Source of the DNA: Nakamurella multipartita DSM 44233
GTDB taxonomy: Bacteria; Actinomycetota; Actinomycetes; Mycobacteriales; Nakamurellaceae
Assembly (NCBI RefSeq): GCF_000024365.1
Contig: NC_013235.1
Coordinates: 2,232,001 to 2,296,000, forward strand
DNA length: 64,000 nt
Direction of reading: 5' to 3'
In this document: positions 23,034 to 32,024 of the stretch, piece after piece
Layout of the letters: each line of letters opens with the position of its first letter
Numbering within the stretch: position 1 is the stretch's first letter
Made by a program: the position numbers and the translations under genes
The notes under the pieces: generated by a model
What the model was told of the DNA's origin: nothing
Database searches by the model: none
What the model saw: the letters and a program-made list of their open reading frames with translations, nothing else

Positions 23034-25354
<2,321 letters not shown>

Positions 25355-25750: not shown

Positions 25751-25922
25751 GTCGGTCGCGGCCTCGACGCCCGAAGTTGAGTCCACCAGAGTGGTGTACG
25801 ACCACTGATCGACCTTGACCCCCTGACCAGGCAGGTCGGGGCGTGTCGGTCCCGGGACGAGGACGGCCACCGCGTGAGGCTTCGAAGGACCTCTCACAGT
25901 CTGTCGAAGGAGACATCACGCG

Positions 25923-26232
25923 ATGACCACTGCCCAGCCTAACGACCCGACGACCGCCGTCGGTGACATGCTCGCGTCGGCGAGCCCGGACCTGCTCCGC
26001 TCGATGCTGTCCACGTTCATTCAGACGCTGATGGGCGCCGAGGCCGACGCCCTGTGCGGCGCCGGCTACGGCGAACGCAGCCCGGACCGGGTCAACTCCC
26101 GCAACGGGTACCGGCACCGGGACTTCGACACCCGGGTCGGCACCCTGGACGTCGCGGTGCCGAAACTGCGGTCCGGGTCGTACTTCCCGGACTGGCTGCT
26201 GGAACGGCGGACCCGCGCCGAACGCGCCCTGG
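25923..26232 (+). pseudogene. IS256-C transposase, 5' part
   Basis: N-terminal ~103 residues of a 414-aa Mutator-type transposase (FIQTLMGAEADALCGAGYGE, SRNGYRHRDFDTRVGTLDV), interrupted after RAERAL by the transposon at 26233. The uninterrupted junction RAERALVSVVATSYLLG is visible in the copy at 52.9 kb. Confidence 0.93.
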
Positions 26233-26296
26233 TGTTGACCGGCGCTCTACATGGCGATGTTGGCATCGTCGTTGTTGACGATGGTCTGGGTGTTGA

Positions 26297-26329
26297 AAGG
26301 CCCCGCCCGGTGGTGGTGGGCGGGGCCTT
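26297..26329 (-). terminator. Terminator after the ExeA-like gene
   Basis: A 12-bp stem, AAGGCCCCGCCC with GGGCGGGGCCTT, around a 9-nt loop, 38 bp beyond the stop codon and inside the transposon end. Confidence 0.75.
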
Positions 26330-26366
26330 GGTGGTCATGGCGGCGGGGTCGTCGTCAATGTGAGGG

Positions 26367-27182
26367 TCATTCGCCTCCTGTTTCGGCGATCGCGGCCCGG
26401 GCTGATTTCTCGTCGACGATGGCCTGGTTGCGGGCGAACGCCGCGGTCAGGGCGTTGATCGCGAGGTTGTTGATGGCGCGGGGGTAGCCGCGGGCGGCGT
26501 TGTGGATCAGGGTGGTGGCGTCGCCGCTGAACAGGGTGTCGCTGCGGCCGGCGATCTTGAGGTGGTGGGTGAGGTAGTCCGCGGTTTCCTGGTCGGTCAT
26601 CCCGGTCAGGGTGCAGCGCACCGAGATCCGTTGGTCCAGCGCGGCGAGCACGCCGAGGCGCAGCCGGTGCCGCAGGGTGGGTTGCCCGACGAGCAGCGCG
26701 GCGAACGGGCTGCCGGAGTCCATGTCGTGGTTGGACAGCATGCGCAGTGCTTCGAGTTGCTGGTTGTCCAACAGGTGCGCCTCATCGATCACGACCACGG
26801 GGGTGCGGCCGCGTTCGGCGTGTTCGGCCGCGAGGGCGTCGGCGGCTTGCGGGGCCAGGATCGAGGTGTAGAACGACGGGGTCCGGCCCAGGGCGGCGAC
26901 GATGTGGTGGAGCATGCCGCGGACCCCGACGGACGGGTTGGGCAGGTAGATGACGACGTGCCGGCTGCTGTCCAGGGCGGCGGTGGCGGCGCGGACGGCG
27001 ACGGTCTTGCCGGCGCCGACCTCGCCGGTGATCACGCCGAGGGCGTGTTGGTCGACGCACCAGCTGATCCGGGCGATCGCTTCGCCCAGTCCGCGGTGCC
27101 GATGCAGCATGCCCGGGGCCAGGTTCCGGCCGAACGGCATCCGGGTGAAGCCGTAGTGGGCCTGAAGGCGTTGCACGCTCAC
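26367..27182 (-). CDS. ExeA/TniB-like AAA+ ATPase of the transposon
   Basis: 271 aa. Walker A GEVGAGKT (about residues 56-63), Walker B VVVIDEAH, and a C-terminal lid (GYPRAINNLAINALTAAF). Such ATPases act with TniA/MuA-type transposases in target selection or immunity. The GTG start overlaps the transposase stop as GTGA, so translation is coupled. Appears intact. Confidence 0.88.
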   Translation of the reverse strand: MSVQRLQAHYGFTRMPFGRNLAPGMLHRHRGLGEAIARISWCVDQHALGVITGEVGAGKTVAVRAATAALDSSRHVVIYLPNPSVGVRGMLHHIVAALGRTPSFYTSILAPQAADALAAEHAERGRTPVVVIDEAHLLDNQQLEALRMLSNHDMDSGSPFAALLVGQPTLRHRLRLGVLAALDQRISVRCTLTGMTDQETADYLTHHLKIAGRSDTLFSGDATTLIHNAARGYPRAINNLAINALTAAFARNQAIVDEKSARAAIAETGGE

Positions 27183-27762
27183 CGGGCCACCGCCTGACCA
27201 TCGTCGTTGCCGTCGTTGCCGTCGTTGCCGTCGTTGCCGTTGAGGTCGGCCAGGGCGTCGTCGATGCTGAGCTGCCCGGGCAGCTCACCTGGGTAGAGGG
27301 CGTGATAGTTGATCTTCTGGTCGGCACTGATCTGTTGCTGGTGGTCCTGCGCGACCAGCGCCAGGTAGTCGATCCCCGTCCGCGGTGTCGTTGCCGGTTC
27401 AGGGGTCTCGGGTCTGGCCTTGGGATGGGTGTGCCGGGTGATCCGATGCGGCACCGCCGGCCCGTGGTCCCGGCCGTCGTAGCGGACCCGCAGGGTTTCC
27501 AGATCGAACGGGGAGAACACCAACTCGACTTTCCGACCGACCAGCCCCGCCTGAACCTGGTAGGTGTTGCCGTGCAGCGACACCGTCGCGGTCCTGGTGA
27601 CCACGCGTTGTTCGGACCACAGGAACGCCTCGGTCAGATCCGCGGGGGTCGGCATCGCCGGAGACCGGCCGGCCCGCTGCCACCCGTCGGTCCAGCGTTG
27701 CAAGGGGCTCTGCCCGGTCTCGGAATGCACGTGGTGGTGATAGGACGCCTCGACCCAGGCGG
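27179..27762 (-). pseudogene. TniA-like DDE transposase, 3' part
   Basis: Mu-type beta-barrel C-terminal region (RVVTRTATVSLHGNTYQV, GRKVELVFSPFDLETLRVRYDG). Joins in frame with the part at 29270 when IS256-B is removed (NGLFTAWVEASYHHHVHSE). The extreme C-terminus has a GND repeat encoded by a 9-bp tandem repeat at 27200-27241. Confidence 0.9.
27200..27241. repeat. 9-bp tandem repeat in the transposase C-terminus
   Basis: About four and a half units of CGTCGTTGC, encoding GND repeats near the end of the TniA-like protein. Prone to slippage but in frame. Confidence 0.85.
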
Positions 27763-29269
27763 GGGCGTGTCAGATGGTCTGTGTAGGAGCCGCGATCGGA
27801 TGCTGAGGCGGGTGCCTCGCGAAGGAGCGGATCATGACCATGACCGAGCATTCCTCGTCGTTGCCGGCGGATGATGCGGTGCCGGGGCCGGGGCGGGTGA
27901 GTGGCCGGCAGCTGCGGGAGTTGCTGGCCGACGACGTGTGGCTCGACGAGTTGATCGACCGCGCCGAGGCCGGCGGTGTCCGGCTGACCGGCGAGGGCGG
28001 GTTCCTGCCGGAGATGATCAAGGCGGTGCTCGAGCGGGGCCTGGCTGCGGAACTGACCTCGCATCTGGGATACGAGGTGGGCGACCCGGCTGGTCGGGGC
28101 TCGCCGAACAGCCGGAACGGGCACACCCCGAAAACGGTGGCGACCGAGGTCGGGCCGGTCCCGTTGAGCGTGCCGCGGGACCGGACGTCGACGTTCGAGC
28201 CGCGGCTGGTGCCCAAGGGCCAACGCCGCCTGGGCGGGTTGGACGAGCAGATCATCAGCTTGTACGCCGGCGGCATGACCGTCCGCGATATCCAGGCCCA
28301 TCTGGCCCGGACACTGGGCACCGAGCTGTCCCACGACACGATCAGCAAGATCACCGACGCGGTCCTGGAAGAGGTCAAGGCCTGGCAGTCCCGGCCGTTG
28401 GAAGAGCTCTACCCGATCATGTACCTGGACGCGATCGTGGTGAAGGTCCGCGACGGGCACCAGGTTCGGAACAAGAGCGCGTACATCGCAGTCGGCGTCG
28501 ATATGGCCGGGATCAAGCACGTGCTGGGGATCTGGGTGCAGTCCACCGAGGGCGCCAAGTTCTGGGCCGGGGTCTGCGCCGAGCTGGCCAACCGGGGCGT
28601 CAAGGACGTGCTGATCGTGTGTTGCGACGGGCTGACCGGGCTACCCGAGGCGATCGAGGCGACCTGGCCGCGGACGACCGTCCAAACGTGTGTGGTCCAC
28701 CTGATCCGGGCCTCGATGCGGTTCGTGTCCTACACCGACCGGCGGGCTGTCGTGGCCCAGCTCAAGACGATCTACACCGCCCCGACCGTGGACGCCGCCG
28801 AGACGGCGCTGTTGACGTTCGCCGAGACCGATCTGGCCCGCCGCTACCCGGCCTGCCTGCGGACCTGGCAGGACGCCTGGGACCGGTTCATCCCGTTCCT
28901 GGCGTTCCCATGGCCGGTCCGCAAGATCATCTACACCACGAACGCGATCGAGTCGTTGAACTACCAGCTCCGCAAGATCATCAAGAACCGCGGGCACTTC
29001 CCCAACGACGACGCAGTGGTCAAGCTGCTGTGGCTGGCCATCCGCGATATCGAGGACAAACGCGCCCGGGACCGGACCGCGGAGAAGGGCAAACGAGTCG
29101 GACGCACCGCCGAGGGCCGGCTCGTCGAGGGCCAGGTCACCACCGGTTGGAAACCCGCGCTCGGTGCACTGGCCATCCAATACCCCGACCGCATCACCCC
29201 CAGGATCAGCTGACCAACCCCAACCCAAGATCAACATCGCGACTTACACAGAAACCTTGACAGCCTCCC
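27763..29269 (+). mobile_element. IS256-family element IS256-B
   Basis: 1507 bp, flanked by the 6-bp duplication AGGCGG (27757-27762, 29270-29275). Inserted in the TniA-like gene. Nearly identical to IS256-A, so one is probably a recent copy of the other or of a third. Confidence 0.93.
27834..29213 (+). CDS. IS256-family transposase, copy B
   Basis: 459 aa, intact, same catalytic Asp-Asp-Glu motifs as copy A (MYLDAIVV, CCDGLTG, NAIESLN). ATG at 27834 with the same upstream AAGGAGCG. Confidence 0.96.
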   Translation: MTMTEHSSSLPADDAVPGPGRVSGRQLRELLADDVWLDELIDRAEAGGVRLTGEGGFLPEMIKAVLERGLAAELTSHLGYEVGDPAGRGSPNSRNGHTPKTVATEVGPVPLSVPRDRTSTFEPRLVPKGQRRLGGLDEQIISLYAGGMTVRDIQAHLARTLGTELSHDTISKITDAVLEEVKAWQSRPLEELYPIMYLDAIVVKVRDGHQVRNKSAYIAVGVDMAGIKHVLGIWVQSTEGAKFWAGVCAELANRGVKDVLIVCCDGLTGLPEAIEATWPRTTVQTCVVHLIRASMRFVSYTDRRAVVAQLKTIYTAPTVDAAETALLTFAETDLARRYPACLRTWQDAWDRFIPFLAFPWPVRKIIYTTNAIESLNYQLRKIIKNRGHFPNDDAVVKLLWLAIRDIEDKRARDRTAEKGKRVGRTAEGRLVEGQVTTGWKPALGALAIQYPDRITPRIS

Positions 29270-30173
29270 AGGCGGTGAACAACCCGTTGAGTTCCAGCAG
29301 GGCGCCGGCGGGGGTCATCCCGGTATCCCGGATCTGGTCGGCGGTGCTGTCATCGATCTCGACCAGGAACTGGTCGCGCACGCTGCGGAACCAGCGTTCG
29401 ATCTTGCCCCGCCCCTGCGGCTGCCCCGGACGGCTGTGGACGAGCCGGATCCCGAGCACCGCGCAGGCCCGCAGCAGCCAGTTGTCGACGAACGCGGACC
29501 CGTTGTCGACGTAGACCGAGCCGGGGACGCCGCGGCTGCCCAACGCGGGTTGCAGGGCCGCGGCCAGCCGGACGGTGTCCTCGGCGAACCCGAACCGATA
29601 CCCCACGGCCACCCGGCTGTGGTCGTCCAGGAACGCGAACAAGTACGTTTTCCGGCCGGCGACCCTGGGCCCGTGCAGGGCGTCGCCGACCCACCGTTCG
29701 TTGCAATCGGCCGCTTCGAACCGGCCGAACACGGCCGGCCCGGCGCCGCCGGGCACCATCAGGTCCAGCCGGTGGAAATGCCGCAGCAGCGTCGTTTCCG
29801 ACGGTGACCAGCCGGTCGAGGATCGCAGGATCCGGGCGACCTGGGCGACCGTGCGGGCCGGGTTCTCCCGTTTCAGACCGGCGGCCAGCTCGAACACGCC
29901 GGTGTCGATCCGGGTGCCGGGTTCCCGGGGCGACGGGCACAGACCTTCGAACCCGCCGGCCCGGTACCGGCGGATCCACCGGTCCAACGACTCCCGCGAG
30001 TATCGGACCCGGCCGCCGAACGGGCCGTCGTGTTCCCGGTCGGCGATCGCCCGAACGACCCGTCCGCGTTGCTTGGTCGACAGGCCCGGTTCCAGCGCCG
30101 GGCAGATCAACTGATATCGGAACAACGCGATCTGCTGCGCCCGTTCCCGCTGCTTGACCGTGTCCACACTCAT
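29270..30173 (-). pseudogene. TniA-like DDE transposase, 5' part
   Basis: N-terminal helix-turn-helix region (SRESLDRWIRRYRAGGFEGL, SPSETTLLRHFHRLDLM) and integrase core with all three catalytic residues: Asp in RWVGDALHG, Asp in VYVDNGSAF, Glu in GRGKIERWFRSVRDQF. Truncated by IS256-B after FTAW, so the C-terminal barrel is missing. The ATG at 30173 is chosen; an ATG at 30227 is also in frame. Confidence 0.9.
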
Positions 30174-30284
30174 CAACCACACCCGTCCTCGTCGTCGCTT
30201 CACCGCCCGGCAGGTGTTGCCGGGCAACGGCCTTCGCGACGATCCCGGACCAACACCGGTGACGTCAGGGGCAACTCGTGTTGA

Positions 30285-30956
30285 TCAACACGGTGTCGAG
30301 AGCCGGGGCCAACCCGGGGACAGGAGCCGGCCGCCCGAGGACGCACAGGCGACCTGTCCGGCCGTCACTGTGCCGACCAAACCGGCCGACCCGAACCGGG
30401 ACGCGATCGCCACCCAGGCCGCGGCGACCGCGGCCACCACGTCCCGCCAGGCGTCGCCAGTCGCGTCCGGGGCCGGCTGGTCCACCCCGGCCCGCCGGGC
30501 AGCGACGGTGAAGTGCACCCGCACCGGCTCCAACCGGGTGCTCATCCGTCGCAACCAGCCCCGGACCGTCGGCGCCGGCGCCCCGACCAGGACGGCGACC
30601 GCCCGGTGCCCGTGGCCGGCCGACCGGGCGACCAGCGCCGCCCAGATCACCGCGGCCGCGTCGGCCCGCCGCAGCAGCACCGTGACCGGCAGCAGCACGT
30701 GCGTGATCAGGCACGACGAACACCTGGCTCGGCGGGGCCGCAGTAACCCGACGCCTCGGACGTCACGCCGGCGAGCCCACCCCCAAGGGGCCAGCACACC
30801 TGGGCAGACCGGGCACGGCACGCCGCCGCCCGTCAGCCGGGACTCGACCAGATCCTGATTCGCCTCTACCGTGACCAACGGGTGCCTCCGTGCATCCGAG
30901 CACGGCCCTCCCGCACAGGTCTTCCCGGACACGTCGGCGGGAGGGCCGTTGTCCAT
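30285..30956 (-). CDS. Zinc-ribbon/HTH protein (DUF6431-like) of the transposon
   Basis: 223 aa. Cys pairs CPVC (48, 51) and CSSC (79, 82) form a likely zinc ribbon. Then the TH-LLP segment, a helical region and HTH-like sequence (HRAVAVLVGAPAPTVRGWLRRMSTR). I recall this family as DUF6431, common near actinobacterial transposases. Position as first gene beside TniA/TniB-like genes suggests an accessory targeting role comparable to TniQ. That role is inference. The start could be lower, near VTVEANQDLVESRL. Confidence 0.7.
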   Translation of the reverse strand: MDNGPPADVSGKTCAGGPCSDARRHPLVTVEANQDLVESRLTGGGVPCPVCPGVLAPWGWARRRDVRGVGLLRPRRARCSSCLITHVLLPVTVLLRRADAAAVIWAALVARSAGHGHRAVAVLVGAPAPTVRGWLRRMSTRLEPVRVHFTVAARRAGVDQPAPDATGDAWRDVVAAVAAAWVAIASRFGSAGLVGTVTAGQVACASSGGRLLSPGWPRLSTPC

Positions 30957-31084
30957 TTCCGATGCTGGTCACACTGACGGTGACGACGACCGGACTCAAC
31001 CCGCCAGCACACCCGCGCACGTTCGTCGGCAGCACCCATGACGAAAGACAGGTCAGCGGCCGTCATCCAGAGCGGTGGTCAACA

Positions 31085-32024
31085 CCTGGTCTCCGTCGTC
31101 GCGACCTCGTACCTGCTCGGGGTGTCGACCCGGCGGGTGGAGAAGCTGGTCCAAGCATTGGGCGTGACGTCGCTGTCCAAGTCGCAGGTGTCGGTGATGG
31201 CCCGCGACCTGGACGAGCAGGTCGAGGCGTTCCGCACCCGGCCGCTGGACCAGGGCCCGTACACGTTCCTCGCGGCCGACGCGCTGGTCCTCAAGGTCCG
31301 CGAGGGCGGCCGGGTCGTGCAGGTCCACGCCCTGCTCGCGACCGGGGTCAACGGTGACGGGCATCGCGAGATCCTGGGCCTGGACGTGACCAGCCGCGAG
31401 GACGGCGCCGGCTGGTTGGCGTTCCTGCGTGGCCTGGTCGCCCGGCGCTTGTCCGGGGTCCGGCTGGTCACCAGCGACGCGCACAGCGGCCTGGTCGCCG
31501 CGATCGGCGCGACCCTGCCGGGTGCCTCGTGGCAGCGATGCCGCACGCATTACGCGGTGAACCTGATGTCGATCACCCCGAAGAGCAGCTGGCCGTGGGT
31601 GCGGACCATGCTGCACTCGATCTACGACCAGGTCGACGCGAAAGCCGTGGCTGCCCAGTTCGACCGGGTGATCGACACGCTCGCCGAGAAGCTGCCCGCG
31701 GTCGCCGATCACCTCGACCAGGCCCGGGCCGACCTGCTCGCGTTCACCCCGTTCCCGAAGGAGATCTGGCGGCAGATCTGGTCCAACAACCCGCAGGAAC
31801 GGCTCAACAAAGAGATCCGCCGCCGGACCGACGTCGTCGGGATCTTCCCCGACCGGGGCGCTCTGATCCGCCTCGTCGGCGCCGTCCTGGCCGAGCAACA
31901 CGACGAATGGACCGAGGGCCGCCGCTACCTTGGCATCGACGTCCTGGCCCGCTCCCAGACCGCCAACGGACCCGACGCGAAGGAGGACACCAGCACCACG
32001 CCCGCGATCACCACCGCCGCCTGA
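31085..32024 (+). pseudogene. IS256-C transposase, 3' part
   Basis: Remaining ~310 residues of the IS256-C transposase: Asp in FLAADALVLKVREGG, Asp in LVTSDAHSGLVAAI, Glu in [14 protein letters not shown]. Intact apart from the transposon insertion; precise loss of the transposon would restore a 414-aa protein. Confidence 0.92.

What the first reader, a model, noticed from the sequence alone, without database searches (positions are those of the whole stretch)
26233..31084. Three-gene transposon: zinc-ribbon DUF6431-like protein with TniA/TniB-type machinery
Seen: element begins TG and ends CA, 5-bp duplication CCTGG, inner inverted repeats; genes for a CxxC...CxxC zinc-ribbon/HTH protein, a DDE transposase with Mu-type C-terminus and an ExeA-like AAA+ ATPase, all leftward. 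Known: Tn7/Mu/Tn552 relatives pair TniA and TniB with a targeting protein such as the zinc-finger protein TniQ. Inference: the DUF6431-like protein is the TniQ analogue and sets target choice. I know no characterised element of this make-up.
Basis: partly seen in the sequence, partly recalled or inferred. Interest (0 to 1): 0.8.

Follow-up and report, generated by a model that had tools for sequence, protein, structure and literature searches.

The report
Three-gene jumping element with DUF6431 protein
This is a real, multi-copy 3.3-kb bacterial jumping element that pairs a known type of transposase and helper ATPase with a small zinc-binding protein of unknown function, which is not the helper protein (TniQ) that known relatives use.

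Summary
The element is real. The host genome holds five copies; four have both ends and perfect 5-bp duplications of different sites. Uninterrupted copies are 3,325-3,339 bp and encode a DUF6431-like zinc protein, TniA (DDE) and TniB (AAA+). Of 85 loci classed, 48 have all three genes full-length, same order and strand. Of 29 elements with both ends and flanks, 24 have perfect flanking repeats (12 of 5 bp, 10 of 6, one each of 8 and 9). TniA and TniB resemble TnsB and phage transposition proteins. The zinc protein is a constant partner but does not match TniQ (profile 1.7%; TniQ control 87.7%). Its ribbon resembles that of ISL3/ISKra4-type transposases. Insertion sites share no sequence. New: a conserved DNA motif at the zinc-gene/tniA junction, in 38 of 41 elements and nowhere else in them, makes a regulator role nearly as plausible. 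"TniQ analogue that sets target choice" is partly supported. I call it a new variant of AAA+-dependent DDE transposons: a three-gene insertion sequence.

The parts
26233..31084 (-). whole element (4,852 bp here with a nested IS; uninterrupted sister copies 3,325-3,339 bp); its three genes read leftward
   Evidence: ends TGTTGACC/GGTCAACA; five copies in the genome
26228..26232 (.). target-site duplication CCTGG, left copy
31085..31089 (.). target-site duplication CCTGG, right copy
31027..31084 (-). zinc-gene-side end: terminal site plus a second direct site 34 bp further in
   Evidence: family logo of 28 ends
26233..26290 (+). tniB-side end: terminal site plus a second direct site 24 bp further in
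   Evidence: family logo of 27 ends
30285..30878 (-). DUF6431-like gene, 197 aa from a probable TTG start (223 aa from the ATG at 30956): zinc ribbon C22-x2-C25/C53-x2-C56 with H60, HTH, C-terminal helices
30266..30283 (-). conserved junction motif CAACACGAGTTGCCCCTG, about 110 bp upstream of the tniA start
   Evidence: the pattern occurs five times in the 6.06-Mb genome, once per element copy
29267..30173 (-). tniA, N-terminal part: HTH and whole DDE core (D164, D223, E259)
27179..27762 (-). tniA, C-terminal part (Mu-transpos_C and tail), cut off from the N-terminal part by the nested IS
27763..29266 (+). nested IS256-family insertion, 1,504 bp, 9-bp duplication, transposase ORF 27834-29213; a 99.3% identical copy lies at 23038-24541
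26367..27182 (-). tniB/ExeA-like AAA+ ATPase, 271 aa, Walker A at residue 53; start overlaps the tniA stop by 4 bp
25923..32024 (+). target: IS256-family transposase gene (25923-26232 and 31090-32024) interrupted by the element

Best explanation
A self-contained three-gene insertion sequence of the AAA+-dependent DDE kind. Shown: real ends, duplications, several copies, and the conserved trio zinc protein - TniA - TniB. Inferred from MuA/MuB and TnsB/TnsC: TniA binds the paired sites at each end, cuts the 3' ends and joins them to target DNA 5 or 6 bp apart; TniB forms an ATP-bound oligomer on target DNA, recruits TniA through its C-terminal tail and licenses joining. With no TnsA-like nuclease and no resolvase seen in 3.3 kb, the product would be a cointegrate resolved by host recombination. 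The DUF6431 protein is an obligate DNA-binding third component of the transposition complex (zinc ribbon, HTH, basic), unrelated to TniQ by sequence and not a site-specific selector. Most likely it bridges TniB/TniA to DNA; it may also, or instead, act at the conserved motif in front of tniA.
For: Five copies, four with perfect 5-bp duplications. 24 of 29 elements with flanking repeats against a cross-locus control. Trio full-length in 48 of 85 loci classed; tniA-tniB overlap by 4 bp in 42 of the 48. In those 48, D, D and E are invariant (48 of 48) and the zinc ligands are kept in 47 or 48 of 48. TniA matches TnsB in PDB (4e-8) and a phage transposase family (5e-46), TniB a phage 'DNA transposition protein' family (1e-20). 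The three proteins co-diverge: Mantel r 0.85-0.89, 0 of 2000 permutations, 30 loci. Zinc gene dN/dS 0.26 between the two own lineages, 0.51 and 0.31 in two other pairs. Zinc protein model pLDDT 90.3: ribbon strands, then helices with an HTH region; net charge +6 and +8 in residues 1-75 and 75-130.
Against: No experiment. 5 of 29 elements have no flanking repeat. Nothing here shows that the zinc protein touches TniA, TniB or target DNA. A fourth gene pair gave a meaningless dN/dS for the zinc gene (14.2, almost no silent changes) and 0.94 for tniA. TniB has no PDB match by single sequence or profile at E <= 0.01. The zinc protein is the most diverged of the three, 52% mean identity against 63% and 71%. 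The end matrix was seeded with ends partly picked for their repeats, so the 24 of 29 is not wholly independent of them.
Confidence: 0.55

Rival explanations
1. The DUF6431 protein is mainly a transcription regulator of tniAB, like the repressor of phage Mu: it binds the conserved motif at the end of its own gene and sets how much transposase is made.
For: Motif CAACACNRRYYNNCYCT in 38 of 41 non-redundant elements at the zinc-gene end/tniA gap and 0 times in the 244 kb (both strands) of the rest of these elements; five genome hits of a stricter pattern, one per copy. In the 30 elements it lies from -53 to +17 relative to the zinc stop codon and in all three frames, while 25 of 30 lie 105-114 bp from tniA, so it is not kept for coding. 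It holds TTG[AC]CC, like a -35 box (recalled consensus).
Against: The pattern was derived from these same elements. No clear -10 box seen; no protein shown to bind it. In 18 more diverged or partial loci a looser form is present in 11 and absent in 7. It could be a plain promoter or a transposase/enhancer site. That the gene is kept over 40-60% divergence is more than an optional regulator needs.
Confidence: 0.32
2. It is a true target selector in the TniQ/TnsD sense: it recognises target DNA or a target feature and brings TniB there.
For: Third gene beside TniA/TniB, zinc-binding and HTH, as in TniQ. In the host genome three of four duplicated sites lie in transposase genes (IS256, IS110, IS110) and the fourth about 60 bp past an istB gene, although IS110/IS256 domains give only 41 and 31 matches in 6 Mb.
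Against: No shared sequence in 22 sites. Of the 18 sites outside the host genome, 9 were looked at for gene content: one IS110 gene, an O-methyltransferase, a GGDEF, a DNA-methylase (in or beside it) and an alcohol-dehydrogenase gene, a CRISPR array, a weak DUF6262 match, two without a match; 9 were not tested. IS DNA is also where insertions survive best, and the pattern was seen after the fact. No TniQ homology.
Confidence: 0.2
3. The zinc protein is a passenger or a relic of another transposase's DNA-binding N-terminus with no role in transposition.
For: Its ribbon aligns to transposases that match PF20020: 89.5% for a mixed set, 58.9% for ISL3 rows alone and 88.7% for an ISKra4-like protein alone. 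Most diverged of the three proteins.
Against: Kept at all 12 of 12 near-full TniA places of the class sample; purifying selection; co-divergence.
Confidence: 0.07

Closest known systems
Tn552 / Tn5053-Tn402 (TniA, TniB, with or without TniQ)
   Same: DDE transposase with Mu-type C-terminus and AAA+ partner; TG...CA ends with repeated sites; duplications of about 5-6 bp (properties of these elements recalled)
   Different: No TniQ, resolvase or cargo seen; DUF6431 gene first in the operon; only 3.2-3.5 kb
Tn7-like / CAST (TnsB, TnsC, TniQ)
   Same: TniA's best solved relative is a TnsB (4e-8); AAA+ partner
   Different: No TnsA or TniQ/TnsD seen, no fixed target, no cargo
Phage Mu (MuA, MuB)
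   Same: TniA and TniB match phage transposase and 'DNA transposition protein' families; layout regulator - A - B (recalled)
   Different: Not found in phages: 0 of 50,697 phage records, one viral contig; zinc protein unlike the Mu repressor (recalled)
IS21 (IstA, IstB)
   Same: Compact insertion sequence of a DDE transposase plus AAA+ helper
   Different: TniB matches AAA_22 and not the IstB model at E <= 1 (an IstB of the same genome does); three genes
IS481 family
   Same: Best NCBIfam match of TniA's N-terminal part (141.6 bits, below the cut-off 224)
   Different: Most IS481 elements make 6-bp duplications (PMC10045372, passages); no Mu-type C-terminus or ATPase (recalled)
DUF6431 (PF20020)
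   Same: All 14 members of A1 match
   Different: A domain of unknown function; one paper of the held library names it, a table row beside a 'DDE-type integrase' in Ruminococcus gnavus (PMC12323340, passage)
ISL3 / ISKra4 transposases
   Same: zinc ribbon
   Different: The DUF6431 protein is about 200 aa and no catalytic domain was matched in it

Membership tests
TniQ (PF06527) | profile similarity to TniQ | tested here: not met
   hhalign 1.7%; TniQ-TniQ control 87.7%; near-against-distant members of the zinc family 99.5%. PF06527 not among the 25 families shown of 29 matched by the 14 members at E <= 1
TniQ (PF06527) | TniQ fold | tested here: inconclusive
   Models pLDDT 80.9 and 90.3; no PDB match at E <= 0.001, no TniQ among the 50 rows shown; a weak match could be missed
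TniQ (PF06527) | needed for target selection | not testable with these tools
   needs an assay
TniA/TnsB/MuA-type DDE transposase | HTH, rve core with D, D, E, Mu-type C-terminal domain | tested here: met
   D164/D223/E259 in 48 of 48
TniB/TnsC/MuB-type ATPase | AAA+ with Walker A/B, gene next to the transposase | tested here: met
   AAA_22 84 bits, PHROG DNA transposition protein 1e-20; 48 loci. Against: no match to a TniB Pfam model at E <= 1 nor to PDB chains at E <= 0.01
Tn7-like transposon | TnsA, TniQ/TnsD and defined target | tested here: not met
   Only three genes recognised in 3.2-3.5 kb; no shared target
Tn5053/Tn402 | tniA-tniB-tniQ with resolvase | tested here: not met
   no tniQ or resolvase between the ends (window; annotated plasmid copies)
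IS481 | NCBIfam IS481 cut-off | tested here: not met
   141.6 of 224 bits for the N-terminal part of the split gene; the whole protein was not scanned against NCBIfam
DUF6431 (PF20020) | family match | tested here: met
   14 of 14 members at E <= 1, best 9e-12; the window protein alone is under the cut-off

The most novel reading that the evidence does not exclude
DUF6431 proteins are a second, independent class of third component for TnsB/TnsC-type machines: a zinc-ribbon/HTH protein of transposase origin that does the licensing job TniQ does elsewhere, and that also reads an element-specific site in front of tniA, coupling supply of transposase to assembly on target DNA. This would define a widespread insertion-sequence family of Actinomycetota and perhaps Bacillota.
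Probability: 0.3. Interest if true: 0.78.

Novelty: new variant of a known kind. Interest (0 to 1): 0.55.

Why it matters
TniQ is the usual adaptor of TnsB/TnsC machines, the basis of CRISPR-guided insertion tools. A compact (3.3 kb) system with an unrelated third protein would show that this position can be filled by other proteins, give DUF6431 a function, and offer a minimal system for asking what the third component does. It would also let many genes now called 'hypothetical', 'helix-turn-helix' or 'DUF6431' (the labels seen) be annotated as parts of a mobile element.

Tried and rejected
Rejected: TniQ homology; a fixed attachment site; a structured RNA at the zinc-gene/tniA junction (Rfam no match at E <= 1 in window 25900-31400; alignment fold -0.01 kcal/mol, 4 pairs, 24 sequences); phage origin (0 of 50,697 phage records at E <= 1e-3; 1 viral contig); a solved or viral structural relative of the zinc protein (no match at E <= 0.001); TniB in PDB at E <= 0.01. 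A scan for inner copies of the 14-bp terminus was negative before the end logos showed longer, looser direct sites. My first label 'ISL3-like' for the ribbon was checked late: three of the PF20020-matching proteins are ISL3 by NCBIfam and one is nearest ISKra4; two ISL3 rows alone give only 58.9%, so I now write ISL3/ISKra4-type.

Literature: DUF6431 as a word is in 1 paper (passage). Searches for transposons with AAA+ helpers, IS481 with AAA+, zinc ribbon with TnsB, and DDE plus HTH plus ATPase wording listed no paper whose title or start of abstract describes this element; two searches listed 20 of 23 and 20 of 26 papers. Most subscription papers, bioRxiv as a library, ISfinder and TnCentral were not searched. 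Papers seen: PMC10293859, PMC10045372, PMC11208146 and PMC12323340 as passages; the rest as search listings.
Full report
WHAT IS THERE. The window lies in a 6.06-Mb single-contig genome. The element is 26233-31084, with ends TGTTGACC...GGTCAACA and CCTGG on both sides. The same genome has five copies of the zinc gene, of the tniB-side end and of tniB. Two copies are uninterrupted at 3,339 bp (L006, L008; 99.9-100% identical to the window copy outside the nested IS), one is 3,325 bp and 89-91% identical (L009), the window copy is 4,852 bp, and one is broken up (L020). The four with both ends have 5-bp duplications CCTGG, CCAGG, GGAGC and ACCAA. The window copy carries a 1,504-bp IS256-family insertion at 27763-29266 with a 9-bp duplication; it separates the TniA catalytic core from its C-terminal part. 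The element itself sits in an IS256-family transposase gene.

GENES. TniA in uninterrupted copies is 493 aa: HTH, rve core (D164, D223, E259), Mu-transpos_C and a tail with a conserved GIDYL-type stretch. Nearest known: IS481-like core (141.6 bits, cut-off 224), TnsB in PDB (4e-8), a phage transposase PHROG (5e-46). TniB is 271 aa, AAA_22; its nearest NCBIfam model is the XrtA/PEP-CTERM ATPase, below cut-off, and it matches a PHROG DNA transposition protein at 1e-20. The first gene encodes a zinc-ribbon/HTH protein of the DUF6431 family: the window protein alone is under the cut-off (17.9 of 26.6 bits), but 14 of 14 members of A1 match. A probable TTG start with GGAGG upstream gives 197 aa.

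CONSERVATION OF THE TRIO. One scan of genome contigs with a six-member alignment gave 69 named loci, 68 of them Actinomycetota by record title and one an Acetothermia MAG. With 12 loci fetched from the 35 plasmid records that had a match and 4 own copies, 85 loci were classed; 48 have all three genes at 75% of the query length or more, in the same order and strand: 35 of 69 named, 10 of 12 plasmid, 3 of 4 own. The zinc-tniA gap is 49-338 bp; tniA and tniB overlap by 4 bp in 42 of 48. Of the 69 named loci, 52 have a TniA match downstream on the same strand. Of the 17 without, L113, L114, L116 and L117 end within 160 bases, L111 keeps tniB, and in the other 12 the match to the zinc protein stops at residue 92-174 of 197 or is split, although one search counts most of their ORFs as full by length (of six loci L086-L091 with the same match, two were printed). 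Reverse test: with TniA as query in 296 genomes of the class (at most 5 candidates scored per genome, list cut), 12 places match at 58% identity or more over at least 410 residues, in 5 genomes, and all 12 have the zinc gene upstream. Partial TniA places without a zinc match exist too (G183 twice, G282:C90, G131:C344, G200). TniA-like genes at 35% identity (G023, G128) sit beside another ATPase, and these genomes gave no zinc-protein match. With PF20020 as query in 396 genomes of the phylum, 19 places in 12 genomes match: 9 have a TniA match in the short flank, 4 resemble the zinc protein without TniA in the flank held, and 6 resemble neither; of those 6, four were scanned and are ISL3 transposases (three) and an ISKra4-like one. 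So the Pfam family is wider than this partner protein. A table in a Ruminococcus gnavus paper lists DUF6431 next to a DDE-type integrase, so the pairing may reach Bacillota. Ten of the 69 named loci are whole contigs of 3.34-3.40 kb, as expected of a collapsed multi-copy element. Pairwise distances of the three proteins correlate (r 0.85-0.89, 30 loci, 0 of 2000 permutations).

ENDS AND TARGETS. Of 53 loci with matches to all three proteins, 29 had two well-scored ends with flanks; 24 of 29 have perfect direct repeats: twelve of 5 bp, ten of 6 bp, one of 8 and one of 9; five have none. Pairing flanks of different loci gives 3 of 812 (5 bp) and 0 of 812 (6 bp). Sizes are 3,209-3,507 bp apart from the window copy: no room for cargo. 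Logos of 28 and 27 ends show a second direct site in each end. The 22 sites with 5- or 6-bp duplications show no common sequence beyond G+C richness and weak single-position preferences (12 and 10 sites). What they hit: in the host genome an IS256 gene, two IS110 genes at different positions, and DNA about 60 bp past an istB gene. Elsewhere, of 18 sites, 9 were looked at: an IS110 gene, O-methyltransferase, GGDEF and alcohol-dehydrogenase genes, a DNA-methylase gene (in or just beside it), a CRISPR array, a weak DUF6262 match and two without a match; 9 were not tested. The own-genome pattern is striking against 41 IS110 and 31 IS256 domain matches in 6 Mb, but insertions in IS DNA also survive best and the test is post hoc.

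THE ZINC PROTEIN. AlphaFold2 on 40 sequences gives pLDDT 90.3: short strand and helix, four-cysteine ribbon, HTH region, then helices; a first model on 14 sequences gave 80.9. Foldseek finds nothing at E <= 0.001 in PDB or BFVD. Profile comparison: TniQ 1.7%; transposases that match PF20020 89.5% over 55 columns as a mixed set, 58.9% for two ISL3 rows and 88.7% for the ISKra4-like protein; controls: TniQ-TniQ 87.7%, near-distant members 99.5%. Residues 1-130 are basic. So it is a DNA-binding-type protein built on a transposase-like ribbon, not a TniQ. The genome does have two TniQ matches, elsewhere.

A NEW OBSERVATION. At the end of the zinc gene, about 110 bp before tniA, lies CAACACGAGTTGCCCCTG. 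Its form CAACACNRRYYNNCYCT is in 38 of 41 non-redundant elements there (missing in L066, L107, L112) and 0 times in the 244 kb (both strands) of the rest of those elements. In the 30 elements that fitted the first search string, the motif starts from 53 bases before to 17 bases after the end of the zinc coding sequence, all three frames occur, and 25 of 30 lie 105-114 bp from tniA, so it is conserved as DNA and belongs to tniA. In the whole host genome a stricter pattern occurs five times, once per copy; the reversed control 0. Of 18 further, mostly more diverged or partial loci, 11 have a looser form and 7 do not. It contains TTG[AC]CC. No RNA fold is supported. It may be promoter plus operator, or an enhancer for transposition.

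HOW IT MOST LIKELY WORKS. Steps shown: ends, duplications, gene trio, selection on the zinc gene. Steps inferred: TniA on paired end sites, TniB oligomer on target DNA, joining with a 5-6 bp stagger, cointegrates resolved by the host; MuB, TnsC and IstB are described as helper ATPases that recruit and stimulate their transposases (PMC11208146, passages). For the zinc protein I hold 'obligate part of the complex' slightly above 'regulator at the junction motif', and both above 'site-specific selector'.

VERDICT. A real three-gene insertion-sequence family, not described in the titles and abstracts that the searches named under Tried and rejected listed: a new variant of AAA+-dependent DDE transposons.

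Noticed in passing
30266-30283 (-): Conserved non-coding motif at the zinc-gene/tniA junction, element-specific in the host genome and in 38 of 41 elements; function unknown.
   Followed up: partly
L073 4026-4820 and 8096-9300: In Nocardia arizonensis a copy of the element sits inside a CRISPR-like array: repeats of about 30 bp at 65-72 bp spacing on both sides, 6-bp duplication GTCGAG just after a repeat.
   Followed up: partly
L161 6557-6778; L163 6549-6755: A Streptomyces and a Kitasatospora member carry an extra ORF of about 70 aa between tniA and tniB, without a Pfam match over its cut-off.
   Followed up: partly
L020 2555-2750 and 9390-12488: Fifth copy in the host genome is broken up: the tniB-side end lies about 6.6 kb from the rest, and the last 70 bp of the zinc-gene side are replaced by sequence like that upstream of the window's IS256-type target gene.
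   Followed up: partly
23038-24541 and 27763-29266: Two 99.3% identical IS256-family copies within 5 kb: an IS inside the element, which is inside another IS-type gene.
   Followed up: partly
L061, L077: Two relatives have flanking repeats of 9 and 8 bp instead of 5 or 6.
   Followed up: no
L086-L091: Six Mycobacterium records share the same shortened zinc-gene match with no tniA downstream on that strand: probably an inherited or collapsed remnant.
   Followed up: no
27202-27237: 9-bp tandem repeats near the tniA end coding a low-complexity N-D-G tail.
   Followed up: no
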